This document shows positions 41,518-59,902 of a stretch of 64,000 bases of DNA, in pieces (positions within the stretch are counted from its first letter, which is position 1; each line of letters starts with the position of its first letter). The position numbers and the translations under genes are program-made. The notes beneath the pieces are model-generated. The model worked only from the letters and a program-made list of their open reading frames with translations. It did no database searches and was not told the origin of the DNA. Origin of the DNA: Desulfarculus baarsii DSM 2075 (GTDB taxonomy: Bacteria; Desulfobacterota; Desulfarculia; Desulfarculales; Desulfarculaceae); assembly GCF_000143965.1 (NCBI RefSeq), contig NC_014365.1:1329501-1393500 (forward strand). Reading direction: 5' to 3'.

Positions 41518-41726
41518 GAGGCCGCTGCACGGTGAAACATAACAAATGTTGTAAAAACAGATAATAACCTGTGAAACATGAAATCTACCGTGCAGCAGCC
41601 GAAGCGCGCCATGGACGGCGCGCCAAATCGCGAGCCTGATTAGGCGAGCGATTTGCGAGGCTTGGCAAAACCGCGCTTTTGCCAAGCCGATGCTGCGAGG
41701 GGCAGGACGCCCCCGTGCAGCGCTCT
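41518..41726. mobile_element. MITE-like hairpin element with 6-bp flanking duplication
   Basis: The element is 209 bp and bracketed by the direct repeat CAATGG (41512-41517 and 41727-41732). Its ends are imperfect inverted repeats (left 41518-41532, right 41713-41726 complement, sharing GCTGCACGG exactly). Inside are successive hairpins: 14-bp arms 41520-41533/41587-41600 (one mismatch), GCGCGCC/GGCGCGC at 41604-41623, CAAATCGC/GCGATTTG at 41624-41655 with a nested GCCT/AGGC, a 12-bp perfect stem 41659-41670/41677-41688, and GGGGC/GCCCC at 41699-41713. It has no coding potential. The remainder of 41368-41745 is empty. Confidence 0.6.
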
Positions 41727-41745
41727 CAATGGTGGAGAAGCGCCC

Positions 41746-48681: not shown

Positions 48682-49548
48682 TTAAGCCTGTTCGACGGCC
48701 TTGCCCGGATTGCCCTTGACCATGGTCACCTCGTTGCCGCGTTGGTTGTAGGTGATTTCGTCCATGATCGCGCGCATCAGGAACACGCCGCGGCCGCGTT
48801 CGGCCAACAGTTGCTCGGGCGAGGTGGGGTCGGGCAGCTTGTCGGGGTCGAAGCCTGGCCCCTCATCGGCGATGACGATCTTGAACATATCGGCGCCGAT
48901 GGTTACGGTCAGGTGGATTTTTTTGTTTTCGTCCCACTTGTTGCCGTGTTCCATGGCGTTCATGATCGCTTCGACCAGGGCCAGCTTGAGGTTGTTGTCC
49001 AGGTCGTGGCTGACGTAGCCCACCGCCGCCGCCGAGGCGGCGATGAGGTAGATGATGTCGTTGATGTAGCATTGCTGGCTGGGCGTATCGATCTGGGTCT
49101 GCTGGGTCACGTTGGGGAAGTGATCCGCGCGCCGCTCGCTGCGCGCGCTCAGGCTCAGCGACTGGCTAACCACCCGCCGCAGCATGTCGATACGGATGGG
49201 CTTGGCCAGAAAGTTCTCCGCGCCGGCCTTGAGGGCGGTGACCACGGTCTCGATGTCGCCGTAACCGCTGATCAGCACCACCGGCGTGCGCGGGTTGATG
49301 TCCTTGACCGCCGCCAGCAGTTGCAGGCCATCCAGGCCGGGCATGCGCACGTCGCTGAGCACCAGGTCGAAGGGCTGCTCGCGGAAAAGCTTCAGCGCTT
49401 CGCGGCCGTCCTGGGCCAGAACGACCTGATGGCCCTTGGTCTCCAGAAAGCGTTTGAGCAACTCGCGCAGGGCGTCTTCGTCATCGGCGACCAGGATGCG
49501 CGACGGCCGGACCGGTAGTTTCTCGTCGTTGGGTTTGTCGCAGCTCAT
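48682..49548 (-). CDS. Response regulator fused to RsbW-type anti-sigma kinase domain
   Basis: Predicted 288 residues. Receiver domain at about 17-130 with phospho-acceptor Asp66 (LVLSDVRMPGLDG) and Lys in AKPI. A HATPase_c_2/RsbW-like domain spans about 150-285: N-box VEAIMNAMEHGNK, G1 DEGPGFDPDKL, G2 ERGRGVFLMRAIMDEI. Such domains phosphorylate STAS antagonists and are usually anti-sigma factors. It is the last gene of the chemosensory operon, two bases after the REC-PP2C gene, with two STAS proteins encoded upstream, so a phosphorylation-gated partner switch is the likely role. Confidence 0.9.
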   Translation of the reverse strand: MSCDKPNDEKLPVRPSRILVADDEDALRELLKRFLETKGHQVVLAQDGREALKLFREQPFDLVLSDVRMPGLDGLQLLAAVKDINPRTPVVLISGYGDIETVVTALKAGAENFLAKPIRIDMLRRVVSQSLSLSARSERRADHFPNVTQQTQIDTPSQQCYINDIIYLIAASAAAVGYVSHDLDNNLKLALVEAIMNAMEHGNKWDENKKIHLTVTIGADMFKIVIADEGPGFDPDKLPDPTSPEQLLAERGRGVFLMRAIMDEITYNQRGNEVTMVKGNPGKAVEQA

Positions 49549-49550
49549 GC

Positions 49551-50735
49551 TTAAAAATCCAATACGATAATGGCGACGTCATCGTTGATCGGGCCCCCGA
49601 CGAAGCGAAACAGCTCTTGGCAGATCATGTCCTTGAGCGCTTCGGTCGCCACTCCGCCACCCGAACCGACGAGGTGGGTCAGGCGGTTGACGCCGAACAT
49701 GACGTCCGCTTGGTTTTTGGCCTCGATCAGGCCATCGGTGTAGAGGACCAACCGATCGCCGGGCAGAATGTCGATCAATTGGTCGCAGAGTTTCATGGTA
49801 GCATCGTTGGATGCGAAAAATCCCAAGATAGGCGATTCCTCGCCCAAAAGGCTGGCCGGCCTGTCCTTGCGGGCCAGGATCGGCGAGGGGTGCCCGGCCG
49901 TGGACCAAATCAGCTGGCGGCTGGCCGGGCGATAGACGCCCGCGAAGGCGGTGACGAAGACATCGTCGGGGGTGAGCTTGAGCAGGTCGTCGTTGAGGGC
50001 CAGCAGGGCGGCGCTGGGCGCTTTGTAGATTTCCAGGTAGCGTGGGATCAGGGCCTTGATGATGGTGGCGGTCATGGCCGATGCCACGCCGTGGCCCGAA
50101 ACGTCGGCCACGACCATGCCCACTTCGTCACGCGAAAGCTCGAAAAAGTCGAAATAGTCGCCGCCCACGCCACTGCACGGCTCGAACTGGTAGGCCACCT
50201 TGACGCCTTGGATGTTGACGTCGCGGGGCAGCAAGAACTGTTGGTAGCGGGCGGCCATCTCCAGTTCGTAATTGAGCAACTCGTTCTGCCGCCTGGTCTG
50301 GAGCATCAGCCGGCGGGTGGCCACGGCGTTGGTGATCTTCAGCGGCAGGGTCACTTCCATGTCCCGCTCGGTGAGGGGCTTGGTGAAGTAGTCGTAGCTG
50401 TTCATGGACAGGGCGATGGTGATGGCGTCGAAGTCGTCCAGCGAGCTGCTGACGATGACCGGTATCAGGTTGACCTCGGGGCGTTCGGCGCGCCACTGCA
50501 AAAACTCGAAGCCGTTCATCACCGGCATGACCAGGTCCAGGATGATCAGATCGATGTCGGGCGCGGCCGTCAGGGCCTCGATGGCCGCGCGGCCGTGCTG
50601 GGCGGTGACGACCTTGTAGCCGAACTTGAGCATCACCGCCCGCAGCATCTCGCGGGTCAGTTTGGAGTCGTCAACGATCAGGATTTTCGCGGGGTTCTGA
50701 CGCAGGTCAGGATCGTACCCGCAGAGGTTGATCAT
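49551..50735 (-). CDS. Response regulator fused to PP2C-type (RsbU/SpoIIE) phosphatase
   Basis: Predicted 394 residues from ATG 50735. The receiver (about 16-135) has Asp67 in LIILDLVMPVMNG and Lys in YFTKPL. A short coiled coil (NELLNYELEMAARYQQFLLPRD, about 175-196) leads to the SpoIIE/RsbU phosphatase with EPCSGVGGDYFDFFEL, MVVADVSGHGVASAM and LVLYTDGLIEAKN metal-binding motifs. It should dephosphorylate a STAS antagonist when its receiver is phosphorylated. The preceding cheB stop overlaps its start, so both belong to the chemosensory operon. Confidence 0.92.
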   Translation of the reverse strand: MINLCGYDPDLRQNPAKILIVDDSKLTREMLRAVMLKFGYKVVTAQHGRAAIEALTAAPDIDLIILDLVMPVMNGFEFLQWRAERPEVNLIPVIVSSSLDDFDAITIALSMNSYDYFTKPLTERDMEVTLPLKITNAVATRRLMLQTRRQNELLNYELEMAARYQQFLLPRDVNIQGVKVAYQFEPCSGVGGDYFDFFELSRDEVGMVVADVSGHGVASAMTATIIKALIPRYLEIYKAPSAALLALNDDLLKLTPDDVFVTAFAGVYRPASRQLIWSTAGHPSPILARKDRPASLLGEESPILGFFASNDATMKLCDQLIDILPGDRLVLYTDGLIEAKNQADVMFGVNRLTHLVGSGGGVATEALKDMICQELFRFVGGPINDDVAIIVLDF

Positions 50736-51829
50736 CCCACGGTCCTTCCGGTGGCCTGACTCCACAGCCCCACCACCAGGGGCGCGATGCGCTCCAACGG
50801 CACGATGCGGTCGGCCGCGCCAAGCTCCACGGCGGCCTTGGGCATGCCGTAGACCACGCATGATTCTTCGTTTTGGGCCACGGTGAAGGCGCCGCAATCG
50901 TGTAGATCTTTGAGGCCCTTGGCCCCATCGTCGCCCATGCCGGTCATGATGATGGCCACGGCGTTGGGCCCGGCGCTGTTGACGCCCGAGCGAAACAGCA
51001 CGTCCACCGATGGTTTGTGGCGGTTGACCGGCGGGCCGTCCTTGACGTTGGCGTAATAACCGTTGGCGTTGCGCTCGACGAGCATGTGCTTGCCGCCGGG
51101 GGCGATCAGGCAGACGCCGGAGGTGATCGGTTGGCCGTCCTGGGCCTCGGCGATGGTGATGTGGGCTTTTTCGTTGAGCCGCTGGGCAAAGGCCAGGGTG
51201 AAGTGTTCGGGCATGTGCTGGACCACGGCGATGGGCGGGCTGTCGGCCGGCAGGCGACAGAGCACGTCCTCCAAGGCCACTGTGCCGCCGGTGGAGGCGC
51301 CGATGAGCACGATCATCGGGCCGCCGGGCCGCGGCGGCGTCTTGGTCAGGCTGACCACCTCGTCGACCTCGACCTTGCGCGGCACCTGCATATTGGCCGG
51401 GCTGACCCGCCGGGCCTTGGCCTTGACCCCGGCGGCGGAGCGCACCTTGGCCACGATCTCCTGGGCCAGGTCGGGCAGGTTTTCGCGCATGTTGACCACG
51501 GGCTTGGCCACGAAATCCACCGCGCCCAGGGCCAGGGCCTTGATGGTGGCCTCGGCCCCGTGCTGGGTCAGGCTGGAAAACATCACCACCGGCGTGGGGT
51601 GAGCCTTCATCAGCTTTTCCAGGAAGGTCAACCCGTCCATGCGCGGCATTTCGATGTCGAGGGTGATCACCGTGGGCCGCAGCTTGAGGAACTTGTCACG
51701 GGCGATATAGGGGTCGGCGGCGGTGGCCACCACTTCGATGTCGGGTTGAGCGTCCAGGGTCGCGCGCAAAAATTCGCGGATCATGGCCGAGTCGTCGACC
51801 ACCATGGCCTTGATGGGCTTGTCCGGCAT
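50732..51829 (-). CDS. cheB: Chemotaxis glutamate methylesterase CheB
   Basis: Predicted 365 residues. Receiver domain with Asp58 in VITLDIEMPRMDG; a linker; then the methylesterase domain with the catalytic Ser179 in LIGASTGGTVAL, the His in AVVQHMPEHFT and Asp in MTGMGDDGAKG. It demethylates and deamidates receptor glutamates, opposing CheR. It follows cheD by 62 bases. Confidence 0.96.
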   Translation of the reverse strand: MPDKPIKAMVVDDSAMIREFLRATLDAQPDIEVVATAADPYIARDKFLKLRPTVITLDIEMPRMDGLTFLEKLMKAHPTPVVMFSSLTQHGAEATIKALALGAVDFVAKPVVNMRENLPDLAQEIVAKVRSAAGVKAKARRVSPANMQVPRKVEVDEVVSLTKTPPRPGGPMIVLIGASTGGTVALEDVLCRLPADSPPIAVVQHMPEHFTLAFAQRLNEKAHITIAEAQDGQPITSGVCLIAPGGKHMLVERNANGYYANVKDGPPVNRHKPSVDVLFRSGVNSAGPNAVAIIMTGMGDDGAKGLKDLHDCGAFTVAQNEESCVVYGMPKAAVELGAADRIVPLERIAPLVVGLWSQATGRTVG

Positions 51830-51891
51830 AACTCATCCAAATTATTCGATGGACGCGCCCAAGGGCCATGCGGCCAAGCGGCGCGCCAAAA

Positions 51892-52476
51892 TCAAAAGAG
51901 CGTGAGGTCTTCGCTTTTGGTTTCTTTGCGCAAATGCTTTTCGTATTTGACCTCGCGGTCGGCCAGCTTGCGGTTGTCCTCGGGCACGAGGCTGCGCACG
52001 TAGGCCTTGCCGGTGCTGGGCAGGTACAAAACCTTGCGGCCGTAGCGCCCGCCCACGTCGGAGTTGACCACGGGGATGCCTTCCATCGACAAAAAGGCCT
52101 TGACGAAATCGATGTTGGCCTGGGGCACGTTTTTGGCCGTCTGGGGGACGGAGTTGAGCACGTGGCCGCCGCCAAAGACCTTGGCCGAGAGGTTGGTCTT
52201 GCCGCCGCCGAGCTTGAGCAGGTCGCCGATCAGCAACTCCATGGCGTACATGCCGTAGCGTCCGCTGTTGCTGGAGAAGACTTCCTCGGCGCGAAAATCG
52301 CCGGGCAGCATGAAGTGGTTCATGCCGCCGATGCGGTTGTCGTTGTCGCGCAGGCACACGCTGATGCAAGAGCCCAGCACGGTGGCGATGACCTCGTCTT
52401 TTTTGGTGACGTAATATTCACCAGGCTGGATCAGGATCATGTCCCGTTTTAGCTGGTTGTGATAGCGTTTGACCAT
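51892..52476 (-). CDS. cheD: Chemoreceptor glutamine deamidase CheD
   Basis: Predicted 194 residues. The active Cys37 is in VLGSCISVCL and His54 in GGMNHFMLP, with a conserved Ser-type residue in YAMELLIGDLLKLGG. CheD deamidates receptor glutamines and, in many species, interacts with CheC; no cheC is seen here. Four bases separate it from cheR. Confidence 0.95.
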   Translation of the reverse strand: MVKRYHNQLKRDMILIQPGEYYVTKKDEVIATVLGSCISVCLRDNDNRIGGMNHFMLPGDFRAEEVFSSNSGRYGMYAMELLIGDLLKLGGGKTNLSAKVFGGGHVLNSVPQTAKNVPQANIDFVKAFLSMEGIPVVNSDVGGRYGRKVLYLPSTGKAYVRSLVPEDNRKLADREVKYEKHLRKETKSEDLTLF

Positions 52477-52480
52477 GCCG

Positions 52481-53359
52481 TTATATCTTTTGGTAAACCG
52501 TCGTGCCGACGTATTGAAACAAGTGCTTGACCATCATCAATGATTCGGAATGGCCCACGAACAGATGGCCGCCGGGCTTGATGACCTTGTGTATTTTTTC
52601 CAGGATGCGTTTTTTGTCGTCGTTATCGAAGTATATCAACACGTTGCGACAAAAGACCACGTCCAGGTCCGGCCGCAGGGGATAGGTTTCGTTCATGAAA
52701 TTGAACTTGCGGAAGGTGATCATCCCGCGCAACTCGGGCTTGACCTGGTAGCGAAAACCCGCCCCATCGCGCATGCGCGAGAAATATCGGCCCAAGAGGT
52801 TGCGCGGCACCGGCTCCAGCAAGGCCTCGTCGTATTGACCGCGGCTGGCGGTGGTCAGCATGCCGGTGTCGATATCGGTGGCCAGGATCTTGATGTCCCA
52901 GCCGGGCTTTTTGTCGAAAAACGCCGCCACGGTCATGGCGATGGTGTAGGGCTCCTCGCCCGACGAACAGCCGGCCGACCAGATGCGCAACTTGCGCCTG
53001 CCGCTGGCCTCGCCGGCGGCGTGCAACGCCGGCAGGACTTTCCCCGCCAAAAACTCGAAGTGATGCTTTTCCCTGAAGAAGTCGGTCTTGTTGGTGGTGA
53101 TGCGATTGACCATCTGCACCACTTCGTCCTCGTCGCCGGCTTCCTCCAGGTATTGGATATATTCGCGGAACGAGGACAGGCCCAGCGCGCGCAGGCGTTT
53201 GCTCAGGCGGCTGATGACCAGGTCGCGCTTGTGCAGACCCAGGCTGATGCCGGTCTGGCCCTTGACGATCACGCGGATCTGTTCGAACTCGTCGGCCGAA
53301 AGATCGTACGGCGTCACCGAGATGGTCGCGTGCGGTTCTCGCTTGCTCTTAAGCGGCAT
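52481..53359 (-). CDS. cheR: Chemotaxis methyltransferase CheR
   Basis: Predicted 292 residues from ATG 53359. The N-terminal helical domain is YDLSADEFEQIRVIVKGQTGISLGLHKRDLVISRLSKRLR; the SAM domain has IWSAGCSSGEEPYTIAM, ILATDIDTGML, YDVVFCRNVLIYF-like LDVVFCRNVLIYFD. It methylates receptor glutamates. The start overlaps the preceding CheW-containing gene by 11 bases. Confidence 0.95.
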   Translation of the reverse strand: MPLKSKREPHATISVTPYDLSADEFEQIRVIVKGQTGISLGLHKRDLVISRLSKRLRALGLSSFREYIQYLEEAGDEDEVVQMVNRITTNKTDFFREKHHFEFLAGKVLPALHAAGEASGRRKLRIWSAGCSSGEEPYTIAMTVAAFFDKKPGWDIKILATDIDTGMLTTASRGQYDEALLEPVPRNLLGRYFSRMRDGAGFRYQVKPELRGMITFRKFNFMNETYPLRPDLDVVFCRNVLIYFDNDDKKRILEKIHKVIKPGGHLFVGHSESLMMVKHLFQYVGTTVYQKI

Positions 53360-54731
53360 TGCCCAGGGCCTCCGGCGCCAAAAGCCTGTCGATGGCCAGC
53401 AAGATGACCATGTCGTCGTCGTGGCGGATGAGGCCGGAAAGGTAGTCACGCTTGATGGCGCCGGAAAAATCCGGGGCTTCCTGCACCAACTCGGGCTCGA
53501 TCTGGATCACGTCGTTGACGCCGTCGACCACCGCGCCCATGATCTTTTCGCCCACGCGCACCACCACCACCACCGGGTCGGTGACCGTTTCGGCCAGGCG
53601 TAGTTTCAGGCGCAGGTCGATCACCGGCACGACCATGCCCCGCAAGTTCATCACGCCCAGCACGTGGTTGGGCGAGCGGGGCAGTTTGGTCAGGTCGGGC
53701 AGGCCGATGATCTCCTGCACCGAGAGGATGTCCACGCCATAGACCTCGCTGCCCAGGGTCAGGGTGAGGAACTCGCTGGGCTCGGGCGGCGCGGGCGGCT
53801 CCACGGCCGGCGTTGGTTGTTCGCGGCGGGCCGGCGGCTGGGCTTCGGCCTTGGCCGCCGGCGGTTGGTTGCGGCGCTGGGGTTTGGCCTCCGCTTGCGG
53901 CTGGGCTTGGGGTTGGGCTTGGGGCGGCGGCGCGCTTGGCTCCTCGGGCGGCGCGGGTTCACCAAGGCCGTTTTGGGCGAAGTCGCCCTCGCTCACCAGG
54001 CGAAACTCGCTTTCCTCCAGGCGCAGGGCCGCCGACAACAGGTCGGCGTCGAGCACGGTGGAGTAGAGCACGTCGAAGCTGACCTCGGCCACCTCGTAGG
54101 TGTGGGGGTTGCCGGCGTCGGGCAGGTCGACGATGGAGTCGAGCAACTCGCCCATGGAGAGCATCTCGTTGATGAGTTGCGTCGGCGTCAGGCCGCGCTT
54201 TTCGATCAGGCGCAGATTGAGGTGGATCCAGAACAGATTGCCCTGGCCCAGTTTGGCGCGCAACACGTAGTTGCTGACCTGGAAGTTGGGCAGGCCGCTT
54301 TTGGGGTTGGGCGAGTCCTTGGCGTCGTACTGGGCCTTGACCTCCTGCTCGACGCCGGCCGACAAAGCCGCCTCCAAGGCCCGGATGGGGCCGTCGACAT
54401 CGATGGCGGCGTGTTCGTCCACCCGCTGGAACAGGGCCGTGAGCACGTCCAGCGATTGCAGCAGGGCGTCGGTCACCGGCTGGCTGGGTTGCAGGTCGCC
54501 GCCGCGGATGAGGTTGAGCAGGTCTTCCATCTTGTGGGCCAGGCGTTCGATTTTGGTCAGGCCCACGAAACCCGCGCCACCCTTGATGGAGTGGATGGCC
54601 CGGAAAACGGTGTTGATGGTCTCCTGGTCGAAGTTGCCCTGCTCCAGGCGCAGCAGGCCGTTTTCCACCTCCTCGAGCAACTCGGTGGATTCGGCTATGA
54701 ATTCTGGAACGATGTCGTCGAACTCGCCCAT
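53349..54731 (-). CDS. Hpt-CheW fusion scaffold protein
   Basis: Predicted 460 residues. The first 110 residues are a histidine phosphotransfer domain with the phospho-acceptor His47 in FRAIHSIKGGAGF. Residues about 150-250 resemble the second CheA-type alpha/beta segment (NLFWIHLNLRLIEKRGLTPTQLINEM), also found at the start of the neighbouring CheA. A Pro/Gln/Ala-rich linker (about 265-325) then leads to a full CheW domain (FLTLTLGSEVYGVDILSVQEIIGLPDLTKLP to GAVVDGVNDVIQI). There is no HATPase kinase domain. It may couple receptors to CheA and relay phosphate, an atypical arrangement. Confidence 0.88.
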   Translation of the reverse strand: MGEFDDIVPEFIAESTELLEEVENGLLRLEQGNFDQETINTVFRAIHSIKGGAGFVGLTKIERLAHKMEDLLNLIRGGDLQPSQPVTDALLQSLDVLTALFQRVDEHAAIDVDGPIRALEAALSAGVEQEVKAQYDAKDSPNPKSGLPNFQVSNYVLRAKLGQGNLFWIHLNLRLIEKRGLTPTQLINEMLSMGELLDSIVDLPDAGNPHTYEVAEVSFDVLYSTVLDADLLSAALRLEESEFRLVSEGDFAQNGLGEPAPPEEPSAPPPQAQPQAQPQAEAKPQRRNQPPAAKAEAQPPARREQPTPAVEPPAPPEPSEFLTLTLGSEVYGVDILSVQEIIGLPDLTKLPRSPNHVLGVMNLRGMVVPVIDLRLKLRLAETVTDPVVVVVRVGEKIMGAVVDGVNDVIQIEPELVQEAPDFSGAIKRDYLSGLIRHDDDMVILLAIDRLLAPEALGNAA

Positions 54732-54753
54732 GGCGTTCTCCGGAGGTCGTTAA

Positions 54754-56817
54754 TCAGGCAAAGGCGATTTTTTCGAGGCCGTGGATATCGAGGATCAGGC
54801 TGACCCTGCCGTCGCCGAGGATGGTGGCGCCAGCCACGCCCTCGATCTTGTGATAATTGTGTTCCAGGCTCTTGATCACCGCCTGCTGTTCGCCCAAAAT
54901 GTCGTCGACCAAGATGCCGAAGCGCCTGGAAACGCTCTCGATGATCACCACCAGGGCCTTGGTGGGGTCGGTGCGTTCGGTGGGCAGGTCCAGCACGTGG
55001 TGCAGACGCACCAGCGGCAGATACTCGCCGCGCACGCTGACCAGCTCGCCCTGGCCCTCCAGGGTCTTTAGCTCGCTGGCCTTGGGCCGCAGCGACTCCA
55101 AAATGCTCAGCACCGGCAGCGTCAGGATCTCGTGGCCCACCCGCACCATCATGCCCTCGATGATCGCCAGCGTCAGCGGCAGCTTGATGCGAAAGATCGT
55201 GCCCCGGCCCGGCGTGGACTCCACCTCCACCGAGCCGCGCAACGACTCGATGTTCTGCCGCACCACGTCCAGGCCCACCCCCCGGCCCGAGACCTCCGTC
55301 ACCTGTTTGGCCGTGGAGAACCCGGCCTGGAACATGAAGCCGAAGACCTCGGCGTCGCTGAGGCTCACGCCCGGCGCGGCCAGGCCCCGCTCGATGGCCT
55401 TGGCCAAGACGGCCTCGCGGTCGATGCCCCGGCCGTCGTCGATGACCTCGATGATGATGCGGCCCTCTTGCTGATAGGCCCGCAGGTGGATCAGGCCCGC
55501 TTCGGGCTTGCCGGCGCGCAGCCGCTCGTCGGGCTGCTCCAGGCCGTGGTCGGCGCTGTTGCGCACCAGATGCTTGAGCGGGTCGGCGATCTGCTCGATG
55601 ACGTTTTTGTCCAGTTCGGTCTCGGTGCCGCTCATGCGCAGGGTGATCTGCTTGCCCAACTCCGAGGCCAGGTCGCGCACCACCCGCTGGAAACGGTTGA
55701 AGGTGGCCTCCACCGGCACCATGCGCACGCGCATGACCTGCTCCTGCAGGTCGCGGCTGATGTGCTCCAGGGCGTCCACCGCCGCCGAAAGCTCGGGCAT
55801 GGCGTCGTCGCCGGCGATCTGCATCACCCGCGCCACCCCGATCACAAGCTCGCCAACAAGGTTGACAAGCTTGTCCAGCTTGTCGGTGTCCACGCGGATC
55901 GTCGGCGCCGGCTGCATCGCCGCGGGAGGGTTGGCCACGGTCGGCGCGGCCGCCCGGGGCGCGGATTGGGCCGCGCTTACCGGGGCCGGCTGGGGCGCGG
56001 GCCTTGGCTGCTCGACGGGGGCCGGTTTGGGCGGTTCGGGTTTGGGCGCGGCGCGTTTGGGGCCGGGCTTGGGCTCGGCGTCCGGTTTGGGCCTTGAGGC
56101 GGCCGGCTTGTATGGCTCGATGCTGATGTCGTTTTCATCCATCACGAAGATAAAGACGTTTTCCACCGTGCTCGGGGGCTCTTCGGTGGCCAGGACCAAC
56201 TCCCACCACAGGTAGAGCATGCCTGGGTCCATCTGGCTCAGCTTGGGCAATGTATCGTAATGACAGATTATTTCTTCTATGCTGCCAAGTTCGCCCAACT
56301 CCAGCAGGAGCATCAGTGGGTCGGTGCCGGTGTTGAAAAGCTCGGGCTGGAAGCGCAAGGTGATTTTGAAGCGGCTCGGCCCGGACGGCGCTTGTTCCTC
56401 TTGGCGGTCGGCTTCCGGCGGCTGGCCAGCCGTGGCCGGTGGCGCGTCGTCTTCCAACAGCCGGCCCAGGGCGGCGATGACCTCCACCGGCGGCGGTGGG
56501 TCGCCGCCGGCCAAGCGTTCATTGACCAACGACTTGAGGGCGTCCACCGACGACAACAGCAGCCCCACCGTATCGGAGTCGGGTTGGCGCTTGCCCTGGC
56601 GCATCTCGTCGAGCACGCCCTCCATGAGGTGGGTCAGGTCCAGCACGTCGTTGAAACCGACGATGCCGGCGTTGCCCTTCATGGTGTGGGCGGCCCGGAA
56701 GATGGCGTTGATCTTTTCGGGATCGGAGGCGCCTTCCAGGTTGACCAGGCCTTCTTCGAGAGACTCGATCAGGTCCTGGGACTCCTCGGCGAAGATTTTG
56801 AGCAGCTTGTCATCCAT
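54754..56817 (-). CDS. cheA: Chemotaxis histidine kinase CheA
   Basis: Predicted 687 residues. Hpt domain with the phospho-acceptor His44 in FRAAHTMKGNAGI; a segment shared with the Hpt-CheW protein (SRFKITLRFQPELFNTGTDPLMLLLELGELG); a Pro/Ala-rich linker; dimerisation domain; HATPase with LVRNSADHGLEQPDER (N-box), VIDDGRGIDREAV (G1) and TEVSGRGVGLDVVR (G2); then the CheW-like P5 domain. It senses receptor state and phosphorylates CheY and CheB. The STAS and CheY genes lie upstream. Confidence 0.96.
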   Translation of the reverse strand: MDDKLLKIFAEESQDLIESLEEGLVNLEGASDPEKINAIFRAAHTMKGNAGIVGFNDVLDLTHLMEGVLDEMRQGKRQPDSDTVGLLLSSVDALKSLVNERLAGGDPPPPVEVIAALGRLLEDDAPPATAGQPPEADRQEEQAPSGPSRFKITLRFQPELFNTGTDPLMLLLELGELGSIEEIICHYDTLPKLSQMDPGMLYLWWELVLATEEPPSTVENVFIFVMDENDISIEPYKPAASRPKPDAEPKPGPKRAAPKPEPPKPAPVEQPRPAPQPAPVSAAQSAPRAAAPTVANPPAAMQPAPTIRVDTDKLDKLVNLVGELVIGVARVMQIAGDDAMPELSAAVDALEHISRDLQEQVMRVRMVPVEATFNRFQRVVRDLASELGKQITLRMSGTETELDKNVIEQIADPLKHLVRNSADHGLEQPDERLRAGKPEAGLIHLRAYQQEGRIIIEVIDDGRGIDREAVLAKAIERGLAAPGVSLSDAEVFGFMFQAGFSTAKQVTEVSGRGVGLDVVRQNIESLRGSVEVESTPGRGTIFRIKLPLTLAIIEGMMVRVGHEILTLPVLSILESLRPKASELKTLEGQGELVSVRGEYLPLVRLHHVLDLPTERTDPTKALVVIIESVSRRFGILVDDILGEQQAVIKSLEHNYHKIEGVAGATILGDGRVSLILDIHGLEKIAFA

Positions 56818-56827
56818 CGGCGACGCC

Positions 56828-57214
56828 TCAGGCCAAGGAGCGCGTGAACTTGCGGACCACCGTCAGAAGCGTGTCGGGCTTGAAGGGCTTGACCAGCCAG
56901 CCCGAGGCCCCCGCCTGTTTGCCCTCGAGCTTTTTGCTGTCTTCCCTCTCGGTTGTCAGCACCAGGATGGGCACGAACTTGAAGCTGGTCTTTTTGACTT
57001 CCTTGATGAAGGCGATACCGTCCATGATCGGCATGTTGATGTCGCTGATGATCATGTCCGGCTGCGTGCGCTGCTGCTCCATCTTTTTCAGGGCCTGGAG
57101 GCCCTCGCTGCCATTGGTGGCCTGAACCACCGTGAAGCCGGCGGGCGAAAGCGTCATCTCCACTGACATTCTGAGCGTGGCCGAATCGTCGACCACAAGG
57201 ATGGTTTTACTCAT
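56828..57214 (-). CDS. cheY: CheY-like single-domain response regulator
   Basis: Predicted 128 residues. Acidic pair at DD9-10 in LVVDDSATLRMSVEMTL, phospho-acceptor Asp58 in MIISDINMPIMDGIAF, Thr in VLTTERED and Lys in WLVKPFKPDTLL. It has no output domain, so it acts on the flagellar switch or another partner. It sits 10 bases before cheA and 27 bases after the second STAS gene. Confidence 0.93.
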   Translation of the reverse strand: MSKTILVVDDSATLRMSVEMTLSPAGFTVVQATNGSEGLQALKKMEQQRTQPDMIISDINMPIMDGIAFIKEVKKTSFKFVPILVLTTEREDSKKLEGKQAGASGWLVKPFKPDTLLTVVRKFTRSLA

Positions 57215-57241
57215 GCCGGCTCCGTCGCATGCCTTTTGGGT

Positions 57242-57535
57242 CTATCCCGCAAAGGCGCTGAAGGCTTGTTTCAGGCCGGTCAACTCCAGCGCCCTCTCGA
57301 CGACCGGAGAAGAATCGATGATGTTAACCGGCCCGATTTCCTTGCGTGTCAACAAAAACGAAAGCAGCGCCTGCAATCCGGCCGTGTCGATCTCGGTGAC
57401 CTGGGCCAGGCTCAGGCGCACGGCGCTTTCGGAATCCAGCCCACGCTGCAGGCAATCGCCCAGCGATTCGAGGTATTGAACCTTGGCCTCGCCCGAGATC
57501 GTTATGACGTCGTTGTCGAGCACGCAGTTGAGCAT
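57242..57535 (-). CDS. STAS-domain protein (MlaB-like), possible partner-switch component
   Basis: Predicted 97 residues. The STAS core LSLAQVTEIDTAGLQALLSFLLTRKEIG carries Thr51 where antagonists have the phosphorylated Ser, so it could be modified by a threonine-capable kinase or act as a non-phosphorylated binding partner. Small STAS proteins in chemosensory operons (as in CheX/STAS pairs) have been seen but roles vary. It lies between the other STAS gene and cheY on the same strand. Confidence 0.82.
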   Translation of the reverse strand: MLNCVLDNDVITISGEAKVQYLESLGDCLQRGLDSESAVRLSLAQVTEIDTAGLQALLSFLLTRKEIGPVNIIDSSPVVERALELTGLKQAFSAFAG

Positions 57536-57549
57536 GCTGGCCCGCCTCG

Positions 57550-57858
57550 CTAGCTGGCTGAAATGTTGAAAATCTTGTCCAGCTTGACCACCTTGAACAT
57601 AGTGTAGATGTCGTTGGACATGTTTTCAATTCTAATGCTGCCGCCGCCGGCCGCCAGATTTTTGTAAAACAACAACAGTTTGCCGATGCCGGCGCTGCCC
57701 ACGAAAGTCACGCCGCTGAAGTCGAACACGACTTCCTTGATGCTGGAGACGTCCAGTTCCAGGAAACGCCTTTTCATTTCCTCGGCGCCGCGCTCGTCGA
57801 TGCTGCCCACTACCTCGATGCGAACCTGGTCTCCACGCTGAGTGACGGTCAATTCCAT
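57550..57858 (-). CDS. STAS-domain anti-sigma factor antagonist-like protein
   Basis: Predicted 102 residues. The fold is EVVGSIDERGAEEMKRRFLE then VVFDFSGVTFVGSAGIGKLLLFYKNL with Ser55 at the usual phosphorylation site (the FVGSAGIG segment). Such proteins bind their RsbW-type kinase when unphosphorylated. The likely kinase and phosphatase are the REC-RsbW and REC-PP2C proteins at the far end of the same operon. It is the first gene of the operon; a possible -10-like TATGGCATAAT region (complement of about 57943-57952) lies in the 149-base gap upstream. Confidence 0.88.
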   Translation of the reverse strand: MELTVTQRGDQVRIEVVGSIDERGAEEMKRRFLELDVSSIKEVVFDFSGVTFVGSAGIGKLLLFYKNLAAGGGSIRIENMSNDIYTMFKVVKLDKIFNISAS

Positions 57859-58007: not shown

Positions 58008-58436
58008 TCAGATGCGCTTTTTTTGCTGGGCCAGGGCCTGGGCCTTGCGTTTCCTGGCCATTTCTTCCTTTTGCAGATCCAGCACGAACTGGTGGATGCG
58101 CTCTTGGTCGCGTTCGCGGATTTTGTCGAAACGCAGCCGCACCACGCCCTCGCGCAACTGACCCAAGGAGCTGAGGATCATCGGGATGGGCTCTTGCGCG
58201 CCGGGCAGGACGAGGATGGCCTTCAGCGGCTTTTCCTGGGGCAGGGGCGGGCCCAGCGCGGCCGCGCCGCCGGCGCTCAGGTCCAGGGCCTTCAGCTGGC
58301 GGCCCTCCACCTTGATGACCACCGGCTTGTCGCTGGGCAGGTCCATCCTGAAATAGTTGCGACGGTCCTCTTCGTATTCGATGACTATTTCGCCGGCCTT
58401 TTTATTGGCCTTTTTGCTTTTCAAGAACAAATTCAA
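58008..58436 (-). CDS. PilZ-domain cyclic-di-GMP-binding protein
   Basis: Predicted 142 residues. The c-di-GMP motifs are RNYFR within DRRNYFRMDLPSD (RxxxR, residues 26-30) and DLSAGG (DxSxxG, about 52-57), with a beta-barrel and a long charged C-terminal helix (IRERDQERIHQFVLDLQKEEMARKRKAQ). It is encoded downstream of motB with a 35-base reading-frame overlap, so it is a good candidate for a flagellar brake like YcgR that acts on the adjacent stator. Confidence 0.9.
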   Translation of the reverse strand: MNLFLKSKKANKKAGEIVIEYEEDRRNYFRMDLPSDKPVVIKVEGRQLKALDLSAGGAAALGPPLPQEKPLKAILVLPGAQEPIPMILSSLGQLREGVVRLRFDKIRERDQERIHQFVLDLQKEEMARKRKAQALAQQKKRI

Positions 58437-59136
58437 CCCTCCGATTCCGGGCCATGTTCTCCTCGGAGCTATCGGGGACCAGCCGCTGGGTGTCGGCGTA
58501 GCCGGTGGCGGTAAGTCTGCTGGGGCTCACGCCTTGTTCTATCAGATATCGTAACACGGCCGTGGCCCTGAGGGAACTTAGCTCCCAGTTGCTGGCGAAT
58601 TTTACCGAACTGATGGGCCGCGAGTCGGTGTGGCCCTTGACGTCGAGCCGCCAGCCAGGATTGCGGTCGACCACGTCGGCGATGGCCTTGAGCACGCCCA
58701 AGGCCTGGGGGTTGATGTCCGACGAGCCCGTGTTGAACAAGAGCTGGCCCTTGACCCGCAGGATGACCTTGTCGCCCTGGTCGATGACCTCGACGACGTC
58801 GTCGAGGTTTTTCTGGTCGGTGACCTCGCGGATATCTTGCATGATGGGGTCGGTCTGGCGGCCGGTCAGCTCGGAGAGGCTCATGCGCTTGGTGTCGTGG
58901 GCGTCGATGCGCCCGATGCGTCCGCCGGGGGCCACGCTGGCCCCCAGGCTGTATTGAATGGAGGTGACGATCTGCTCGAAGCGTTCGGTGTCCAGCCGCG
59001 CCAACGAAAGCATCATCACGAAAAAAGTCAACAGCAGCGTGACCATATCGGCGTAGGTCACCAACCACTCGCGGCCTTCCTCGCCGGCGTCGTCGGTGAT
59101 CAGCGTGTCGGCGTCGTTATTGTTTTTTGGCGCCAC
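58402..59136 (-). CDS. motB: Flagellar stator protein MotB
   Basis: Predicted 244 residues. One transmembrane helix with the proton-carrying Asp30 in WLVTYADMVTLLLTFFVMM, a plug region, and an OmpA-like peptidoglycan-binding domain (VKGHTDSRPISSVKFASNWELSSLRATAVLRYLIEQGVSPSRLTATGY). It anchors the MotA complex to the wall. Its start overlaps motA by 20 bases and its end overlaps the PilZ gene. Confidence 0.94.
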   Translation of the reverse strand: MAPKNNNDADTLITDDAGEEGREWLVTYADMVTLLLTFFVMMLSLARLDTERFEQIVTSIQYSLGASVAPGGRIGRIDAHDTKRMSLSELTGRQTDPIMQDIREVTDQKNLDDVVEVIDQGDKVILRVKGQLLFNTGSSDINPQALGVLKAIADVVDRNPGWRLDVKGHTDSRPISSVKFASNWELSSLRATAVLRYLIEQGVSPSRLTATGYADTQRLVPDSSEENMARNRRVEFVLEKQKGQ

Positions 59137-59902
59137 CGGTCTTCTCCGGGTTGTAGGCTTCGCGCTGCTTGGGCGGGATGAAGGAACTGAGCTTTTCGTA
59201 AATCAGCATGGGGTTGTTGTTTTCGAGGATGCTGACGGCGCCCTCGAAGATCAGCTCCAGGTTGACCAACTCGATGTTGGTGCGGTTGCGCAGTTTGCCG
59301 GCGATAGGCAAAAAAAACAAAGAAGACAACAGCGAACCATAAAAGGTGGTGATCAAGGCCACGGCCATGGCCGGGCCGATGGTGGCCGGGTCGTCGAGTT
59401 GTCCCAGCATCTGCACCAGGCCGATGAGCGTGCCCAGCATGCCGAAAGACGGCGCGTAGGAGCCCATCTTTTTGAACACGTCCTGGGCGTCCATGTGCCG
59501 GGCGCGCAGGGCGTCGATCTCGATGCGCAGCGTCTGGCGGATAAGCTCCTCGGGCGCGCCGTCGGCGATGAGCATCAGGGCTTTTTTGAGCACCGCGTCG
59601 TTGGTCTTGACCTTGGACAGGGCCACCAGGCCTTGCCGTCGCGAGATGTTGGCCAGCGTCAGCAACAACCGCACGACCTCGTTGGGGTTGATCTTGCGCT
59701 GGCGAAAGACCTGGCTGGCCGCGCGGAAGGCGTGAACCACCTCGGGCAGGGGAAAGGTGATCAGCGTGGCCGCCAACGTCCCGCCCATGACGATCATCAT
59801 GCTGGGCAGGTTGATGAACAGATCCACCCCGCCCTGGCTGAAGATGGCCCCGGAAATCAGCGCCAAACCCGAGAAAATGCCCAATATGGTGGCGAAATCC
59901 AT
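59117..59902 (-). CDS. motA: Flagellar stator protein MotA
   Basis: Predicted 261 residues. Four transmembrane helices (about 5-22, 30-50, 150-170, 180-202) and the cytoplasmic loop between helices 2 and 3; FGMLGTLIGLVQMLGQLDDPATIGPAMAVALITTFYGSLLSSLFFLPIAGKL is diagnostic for the MotA/TolQ/ExbB family, and pairing with MotB identifies it as a stator. It generates torque from ion flux. No flagellar structural gene is present in the window. Confidence 0.94.
   Translation of the reverse strand: MDFATILGIFSGLALISGAIFSQGGVDLFINLPSMMIVMGGTLAATLITFPLPEVVHAFRAASQVFRQRKINPNEVVRLLLTLANISRRQGLVALSKVKTNDAVLKKALMLIADGAPEELIRQTLRIEIDALRARHMDAQDVFKKMGSYAPSFGMLGTLIGLVQMLGQLDDPATIGPAMAVALITTFYGSLLSSLFFLPIAGKLRNRTNIELVNLELIFEGAVSILENNNPMLIYEKLSSFIPPKQREAYNPEKTGGAKKQ

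What the first reader, a model, noticed from the sequence alone, without database searches (positions are those of the whole stretch)
48682..57858. Chemosensory array fused with an Rsb-type partner-switching module
One operon encodes CheA, CheY, CheR, CheD, CheB and an Hpt-CheW scaffold together with two STAS proteins, a receiver-PP2C phosphatase and a receiver-RsbW kinase. CheA could phosphorylate the receivers on the phosphatase and the kinase, so chemoreceptor input would set the phosphorylation state of the STAS antagonist. The output may be a sigma factor or a non-motility behaviour rather than swimming. Splitting the opposing enzymes into two receiver-fused proteins differs from single-protein designs such as SypE.
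Basis: partly seen in the sequence, partly recalled or inferred. Interest (0 to 1): 0.65.

Follow-up and report, generated by a model that had tools for sequence, protein, structure and literature searches.

The report
Chemosensory operon wired to partner switch
A bacterial operon joins a full chemotaxis-type signalling array to a protein switch that normally controls gene expression, and relatives that have lost their flagella still keep the switch and often the array, so this 'chemotaxis' system probably controls something other than swimming.

Summary
Window 48682-57858 (minus strand) is a tight ten-gene operon: STAS1, STAS2, CheY, CheA, Hpt-CheW, CheR, CheD, CheB, REC-PP2C (SpoIIE type), REC-RsbW. 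The genome is one 3.66-Mb contig, probably Desulfarculus baarsii. REC-RsbW occurs in all 20 family genomes held. Eight genomes of one genus lack FliG and FlhA, hence flagella. All eight keep STAS1 and REC-RsbW, six keep REC-PP2C, and four keep the whole che block with intact CheA motifs. The che block was lost about three times from between STAS1 and PP2C/RsbW. So the partner switch is the core, its target is not flagellar, and the array has an output that survives without flagella. Only STAS1 reliably carries the phosphorylatable Ser; STAS2 travels with the che genes and lacks it in 7 of 9 genomes. No sigma factor lies nearby. Phosphotransfer from CheA to the two receivers is inferred, not shown; receivers stay intact where CheA is gone, so CheA cannot be their only input. 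Three other Desulfobacterota families join che genes to a partner switch in different arrangements. Verdict: real; a new variant of a known kind.

The parts
57550..57858 (-). STAS1: RsbV-like antagonist, Ser55 at the phospho-site (FVGSAGIG)
   Evidence: Pfam STAS 3.7e-13; aligned with TM1442, RsbV and SpoIIAA; Ser kept in 13 of 13 orthologues
57242..57535 (-). STAS2: che-associated STAS protein, D50-T51-AGLQ; the residue at the phospho-site is Thr here and I, L or M in 7 of 9 orthologues
   Evidence: Pfam STAS_2 3e-8; absent wherever the che block is absent
56828..57214 (-). CheY (D58)
   Evidence: Pfam Response_reg 1.2e-25
54754..56817 (-). CheA: Hpt (H44), P2-like region, dimerisation, ATPase, CheW-like domain
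   Evidence: Pfam; motifs intact in 9 of 9 sequences examined, aflagellate ones included
53349..54731 (-). Hpt (H47)-CheW scaffold protein; CheA-like but without P3/P4 kinase domains
   Evidence: Pfam Hpt 7.4e-18, CheW 1.7e-33; HxxKG motif decayed in the 4 aflagellate orthologues
52481..53359 (-). CheR methyltransferase
   Evidence: Pfam CheR 8.4e-66
51892..52476 (-). CheD deamidase
   Evidence: Pfam CheD 3e-28
50732..51829 (-). CheB: REC (D58) plus methylesterase
   Evidence: Pfam CheB_methylest 3.2e-64
49551..50735 (-). REC (D67)-PP2C phosphatase (D193, D211, D334, D385/386)
   Evidence: Pfam REC 1.4e-19, SpoIIE 1.2e-40; catalytic residues conserved in relatives; overlaps cheB by 4 bp
48682..49548 (-). 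REC (D66)-RsbW-type Ser kinase/anti-factor (E193, N197, D228, RGRG)
   Evidence: Pfam REC 4.1e-31, HATPase_c_2 1.9e-26; B. subtilis RsbW 1.2e-15, SenB 9qih
59117..59902 (-). motA, flagellar stator, upstream; absent at this place in the aflagellate genus
   Evidence: Pfam MotA_ExbB 9.6e-28
58402..59136 (-). motB, flagellar stator
   Evidence: Pfam MotB_plug 1.3e-17
58008..58436 (-). PilZ-domain protein between motB and STAS1
   Evidence: Pfam PilZ 2.3e-6

Best explanation
This is a chemosensory operon with two outputs. Receptors encoded elsewhere drive CheA. CheA phosphorylates CheY, which acts on the flagellar motor in flagellated members, and CheB for adaptation. It also phosphorylates the receivers of two opposing enzymes, REC-PP2C and REC-RsbW. 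Those receivers set the balance between dephosphorylation and phosphorylation of STAS1 at Ser55. The phospho-state of STAS1 decides whether it holds the RsbW domain, releasing whatever RsbW otherwise binds, or acts on another target. Shown by sequence and comparative genomics: the operon, intact catalytic residues, STAS1 as the only consistently phosphorylatable STAS, survival of STAS1 and REC-RsbW in all eight aflagellate genomes, and survival of the whole array in four of them. Inferred: phosphotransfer from CheA to the two receivers, the sign of each receiver's effect, STAS1 as substrate of both enzymes, and the target, which is not flagellar and is probably a sigma or anti-sigma factor, or a c-di-GMP enzyme, encoded elsewhere.
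For: Ten-gene operon with tight spacing. REC-RsbW in 20 of 20 family genomes, in the same gene neighbourhood where contigs allow a check. Genus g3 has no FliG (0 of 8) and no FlhA (0 of 8, against 13 of 13 in the other genomes). There the whole operon is kept in G005, G007, G008 and G009, STAS1+PP2C+RsbW in G003 and G006, and STAS1+RsbW in G004 and G010. On the RsbW tree the fewest changes are one for flagella and three for the che block. CheA, CheY, PP2C, RsbW and STAS1 keep their active residues in aflagellates, with dN/dS of about 0.2-0.4 for CheA, close to a flagellated pair. Few MCPs remain: 1, 3, 2 and 2 in the che-positive aflagellates, and all four keep one with the C-terminal tail GFEEF, a CheR/CheD-docking type tail also found on two MCPs of this genome. 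Joined che and partner-switch genes occur in three other families: L187/L188, L140, L172. Precedents: hybrid kinases-HptB-HsbR-HsbA (PMC6482189), RsbK-RsbY (PMC4574943).
Against: The receiver Asp of REC-RsbW is intact in G003, G004 and G010, which have no detectable CheA, so another donor exists at least there. In flagellated G018 the REC of RsbW has lost one acidic-pocket Asp (VDSE). G018 also has this CheA as its only detected CheA together with flagella, so a motor role is real and the che genes could serve mainly CheY there. The che block was lost about three times within the aflagellate genus, so the array is dispensable to the switch. There is no direct biochemical evidence.
Confidence: 0.6

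Rival explanations
1. Neighbours, not partners: an ordinary flagellar che operon and an independent partner switch share a transcript. CheA signals only to CheY and CheB. The receivers on PP2C and RsbW are served by other histidine kinases, and STAS1/RsbW answers a separate stimulus.
For: motA, motB and PilZ lie directly upstream in flagellated members. The switch persists without any CheA, with receiver Asp intact. The che block was lost about three times while the switch stayed.
Against: Four aflagellate genomes keep the che block, and CheA there shows purifying selection, which a purely flagellar role does not explain. cheB and REC-PP2C overlap by 4 bp. The che block lies inside the switch, between STAS1 and PP2C. 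Different che and partner-switch joins recur in three other families.
Confidence: 0.25
2. The array serves another motility or surface apparatus in aflagellates, for example type IV pili through CheY, and the partner switch only tunes expression.
For: CheY is intact and conserved in the aflagellate members, so it still has a job. Nostoc couples che-like and partner-switch loci to type IV pilus motility (PMC6495340).
Against: No pilus genes were recognised beside the operon, though pili were not searched genome-wide. This does not explain the receivers on PP2C and RsbW.
Confidence: 0.12
3. The switch output is classical: REC-RsbW sequesters an alternative sigma factor and STAS1 releases it. This is a refinement of the output step and is compatible with the best explanation.
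For: The RsbW domain matches B. subtilis RsbW (1.2e-15) and SpoIIAB-type anti-sigma factors. HsbR and CrsR bind RpoS (PMC6482189). The genome has ten sigma-70 region 2 matches.
Against: No sigma gene was found beside the operon in the family loci or in the related loci, most of them read to about 10 kb on each side. Many Gram-negative switches act through the STAS protein on non-sigma or unknown targets (SypA, HmpV, BtrV; PMC8256260).
Confidence: 0.4

Closest known systems
Pseudomonas aeruginosa HptB-HsbR-HsbA (and Shewanella CrsR-CrsA)
   Same: Histidine-phosphorelay input to a receiver-controlled PP2C and RsbW pair that sets the phospho-state of a single STAS protein, linked to swimming against sessile life (PMC6482189).
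   Different: PP2C and RsbW are in one protein; input is from hybrid kinases through HptB, not from a CheA/MCP array with methylation-based adaptation.
Bacillus cereus RsbK-RsbM-RsbY
   Same: REC-PP2C under a histidine kinase, with a methyltransferase modifying the sensor (PMC4574943).
   Different: Dedicated sensor kinase, no CheA/CheB/CheD/CheY, RsbW without a receiver, known sigma-B target.
TciR of Vogesella indigofera
   Same: REC-RsbW architecture, described as not functionally characterised before (PMC12826045).
   Different: Partner is a dedicated kinase TciK; no RsbV in that genome; no chemosensory operon.
Nostoc punctiforme hmp locus (HmpA-F, HmpU-V-W)
   Same: A chemotaxis-like system and a partner switch serve the same developmental and motility programme (PMC6495340, PMC8256260).
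   Different: Described as two systems, with the STAS protein as output. Receiver fusions of this kind were not mentioned in the text read here.
Vibrio fischeri SypE-SypA
   Same: Receiver-governed kinase and phosphatase acting on one STAS protein with a non-sigma output (PMC8256260, PMC12826045).
   Different: Single RsbW-REC-PP2C protein; no che operon.
Chemosensory classes with a stand-alone STAS gene
   Same: STAS2 in the che block fits the recorded 'S' gene in F-class gene orders (PMC9239204).
   Different: Those gene orders are not described there with PP2C and RsbW partners.

Membership tests
Bacterial chemosensory system | CheA with Hpt, dimerisation, ATPase and CheW-like domains | tested here: met
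   all domains and H44/N-box/G-box motifs
Bacterial chemosensory system | Adaptation enzymes CheR, CheB, CheD | tested here: met
Bacterial chemosensory system | CheW coupling protein and MCP receptors | tested here: inconclusive
   CheW only as an Hpt-CheW fusion; no MCP in the operon, but about 25 MCPs elsewhere in the genome; pairing not tested
Flagellar chemotaxis system | Flagellum present to receive CheY wherever the operon occurs | tested here: not met
   Met in this genome (motAB adjacent), but not in the 8 genomes of g3, 4 of which keep the operon
Rsb-type partner switch | RsbW-type HATPase with Glu/Asn N-box | tested here: met
   E193, N197; HATPase_c_2 1.9e-26; RsbW 1.2e-15
Rsb-type partner switch | STAS antagonist with phosphorylatable Ser/Thr | tested here: met
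   STAS1 Ser in 13 of 13. Not met for STAS2 as a family (7 of 9 have I, L or M)
Rsb-type partner switch | PP2C phosphatase with metal-binding Asp residues | tested here: met
   D193, D211, D334, D385/386; PP2C gene absent at the locus in G004 and G010
Rsb-type partner switch | Cognate sigma factor encoded nearby | tested here: not met
   No sigma match in the family loci or related loci; many known switches lack one too
SypE/HsbR-type single-protein switch | Kinase, receiver and phosphatase in one protein | tested here: not met
   Two proteins, each with its own receiver
CheA-controlled partner switch | Phosphotransfer from CheA to the PP2C and RsbW receivers | not testable with these tools
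   Needs purified proteins; only receiver and kinase motifs could be checked

The most novel reading that the evidence does not exclude
Chemosensory arrays form a recurrent non-motility output class in which CheA drives a partner switch. In Desulfarculaceae both opposing enzymes carry receivers, so one kinase sets both arms of the switch. The aflagellate genus is a natural experiment in which the flagellar output was lost and the partner-switch output kept. Independent versions exist in at least three other Desulfobacterota families (hybrid CheA-REC with REC-PP2C/RsbW/STAS; CheA with RsbW/STAS/GAF-PP2C; che genes with a PP2C-RsbW-REC protein).
Probability: 0.45. Interest if true: 0.78.

Novelty: new variant of a known kind. 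Interest (0 to 1): 0.6.

Why it matters
It would connect the best-studied bacterial sensory machine, with its gain control and memory, to a protein switch that usually decides gene expression, so that receptor-cluster computation could set a slow cell-state decision. The aflagellate relatives make the question 'what do chemosensory arrays do without flagella?' directly testable, with one to three receptors instead of dozens.

Tried and rejected
A conserved sigma factor near the operon: none found. My first sigma and MCP models contained some antisense ORFs because loci were not re-oriented; they were rebuilt and the scan repeated (two of the ten sigma models are still doubtful, eight are sound), and the key MCPs were confirmed with Pfam. 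STAS2 as a second antagonist: rejected on its site residue and on its loss with the che genes. The idea that the switch is an add-on to an obligatory che system: rejected, since the switch outlives the che genes. A candidate output gene between RsbW and hisD in relatives turned out to be a NUDIX hydrolase absent here. Co-localisation of RsbW with che genes in the wider sample of 40 loci was seen in only 2, so it is rare; I count operon adjacency there, not mere proximity. Literature on SenB (PDB 9qih) and on a che plus partner-switch operon in this family was not found. Sigma-70 promoter and terminator scans were no better than chance. Structure prediction was not run, since sequence matches already fix the folds.

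Full report
WHAT IS THERE. Reading along the minus strand: STAS1 (57858-57550), STAS2 (57535-57242), CheY (57214-56828), CheA (56817-54754), Hpt-CheW (54731-53349), CheR (53359-52481), CheD (52476-51892), CheB (51829-50732), REC-PP2C (50735-49551), REC-RsbW (49548-48682). Gaps are between -11 and +62 bp. Directly upstream lie motA, motB and a PilZ protein, and hisD lies 91 bp downstream. The genome is a single contig of 3,655,731 bases. From memory that is the size of Desulfarculus baarsii, and the closest named relative found is Dethiosulfatarculus sandiegensis.

ACTIVE SITES. Receiver Asp residues are present in CheY (D58), CheB (D58), REC-PP2C (D67) and REC-RsbW (D66). CheA H44 and Hpt-CheW H47 are present, the PP2C metal-site Asp residues are present, and the RsbW domain has the Glu/Asn N-box and glycine motifs. 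The RsbW domain matches B. subtilis RsbW (1.2e-15), and the full protein matches SenB (PDB 9qih), also a REC-RsbW protein by this alignment. STAS1 aligns with TM1442, RsbV and SpoIIAA with Ser55 at the phospho-site. STAS2 has a D-x-A-G-L-Q site in which x is Thr here and in one relative, and Ile, Leu or Met in seven of nine. STAS2 is therefore better read as the STAS gene that is recorded in several chemosensory gene orders (PMC9239204) than as a second antagonist.

THE NATURAL EXPERIMENT. All 20 genomes held of the family carry REC-RsbW, at the same place near hisD where the contig allows a check. One genus (g3, eight genomes) has no FliG and no FlhA, whereas FlhA is found in all 13 other genomes of the order. 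Within that genus, G005, G007, G008 and G009 keep the entire operon without motAB; G003 and G006 keep STAS1, REC-PP2C and REC-RsbW only; G004 and G010 keep STAS1 and REC-RsbW only. These loci are contiguous within contigs, so the absences are not assembly gaps. On the REC-RsbW tree the che block needs at least three changes, the flagellum one and PP2C one (support for the genus 87/99, some branches weak). The partner-switch core is therefore STAS1 plus REC-RsbW, usually with REC-PP2C, and the che block, STAS2 to CheB, sits inside it.

WHAT THE ARRAY STILL DOES WITHOUT FLAGELLA. In the four che-positive aflagellates CheA keeps its Hpt, N-box and G-box motifs, and CheY its phosphorylation site. 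Pairwise dN/dS for CheA is about 0.24 and 0.41, against 0.28 for a flagellated pair (rough, dS is high). The Hpt of the Hpt-CheW scaffold has lost the Lys of its HxxKG motif in all four while keeping the His, so the scaffold's Hpt may belong to the flagellar branch (inference). MCP numbers fall from 10-31 in flagellated family members to 0-3. All four che-positive aflagellates keep one MCP of 725-780 residues (open frame) with the tail GFEEF; the one scanned has a CZB-like region (Pfam 1e-4, below its cut-off). This genome has two MCPs with the same tail (G000:613072 and 2153415), though their sensor domains differ. Such an aromatic pentapeptide tail is the usual docking site for CheR/CheD (own knowledge), so it is a candidate input to this array.

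LIMITS. The receivers keep their Asp in che-less genomes, including G003, G004 and G010, which have no detectable CheA at all. Another donor must serve them there, and the same may be true here. In G018, flagellated and with this CheA as its only detected one, the REC of RsbW has a damaged acidic pocket. A dual role is the simplest reading: motor control through CheY where flagella exist, and partner-switch control besides. No sigma factor was found beside any family locus.

OTHER CASES. A sample of 394 Desulfobacterota genomes gave RsbW matches in 56. In 40 loci fetched outside the family, many are stand-alone REC-RsbW proteins or the common PP2C-STAS-RsbW trio. Three other joins with che genes were found. 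L187 and L188 have REC-PP2C, RsbW, STAS, a CheA-REC hybrid and CheW, with CheR and CheB nearby. L140 has REC, GAF-PP2C, STAS, RsbW, CheA, CheW and two MCPs. L172 has CheW, CheR, CheD, CheB and a PilJ-HAMP-PP2C-RsbW-REC protein. So the joining has probably happened several times, but it is rare.

AGAINST THE LITERATURE. Each element has a precedent: a receiver-controlled PP2C/RsbW pair on a phosphorelay (HptB-HsbR-HsbA, PMC6482189), REC-PP2C under a histidine kinase with a sensor methyltransferase (RsbK-RsbM-RsbY, PMC4574943), REC-RsbW (TciR, PMC12826045), and a chemotaxis-like and a partner-switch system serving one programme (Nostoc hmp, PMC6495340). I found no description of a complete che operon containing both receiver-fused enzymes; the library holds open-access papers only. 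Hence a new variant of a known kind.

VERDICT. Observation confirmed. Interpretation partly supported: the coupling and the non-swimming output are now supported by comparative evidence, the role of the STAS pair is corrected, a local sigma factor is not found, and CheA-to-receiver phosphotransfer remains inferred (my estimate is 0.65 that CheA phosphorylates at least one of the two).

Noticed in passing
window 54761-55935; L131 7797-8971 (G000:3011797-3012971): An exact 1175-bp copy of the 3' part of this cheA (dimerisation, ATPase and CheW-like domains, no Hpt) lies 1.6 Mb away as a 412-codon ORF with its own GTG start, beside an acetyl-CoA synthetase gene and a dCache MCP. It could be a recent duplication giving an Hpt-less CheA; assembly error is not excluded.
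   Followed up: partly
window 41518-41727 and L131 7448-7657: A 210-bp stretch, 94% identical, lies just before the partial cheA copy and also in the window between genes; possibly a dispersed repeat.
   Followed up: no
L193, L194: A Wsp-like cluster (CheW, CheR-type protein, CheW, two MCPs, CheA-REC, CheB, receiver proteins) in two genomes of the aflagellate genus.
   Followed up: no
L143, L145, L146, L149, L150, L152, L155, L159-L164, L168, L169, L173, L174, L177: Stand-alone REC-RsbW proteins of about 300 residues in other Desulfobacterota families with no STAS, PP2C or che gene detected nearby, similar in architecture to TciR.
   Followed up: partly
L009 10840-11358 and equivalents: A NUDIX hydrolase gene lies between REC-RsbW and hisD in most family members but not in this genome.
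   Followed up: yes
L188 13536-15173: A HEAT-repeat protein with a C-terminal receiver next to a CheA-REC hybrid and partner-switch genes.
   Followed up: no
G000:613072-613536 (L052) and G000:2153415-2153879 (L053): Two MCPs whose C-terminus ends in GFEEF, matching the tail of the MCP retained by the che-positive aflagellate genomes; several other MCPs here end in DF-x-x-F type tails.
   Followed up: partly
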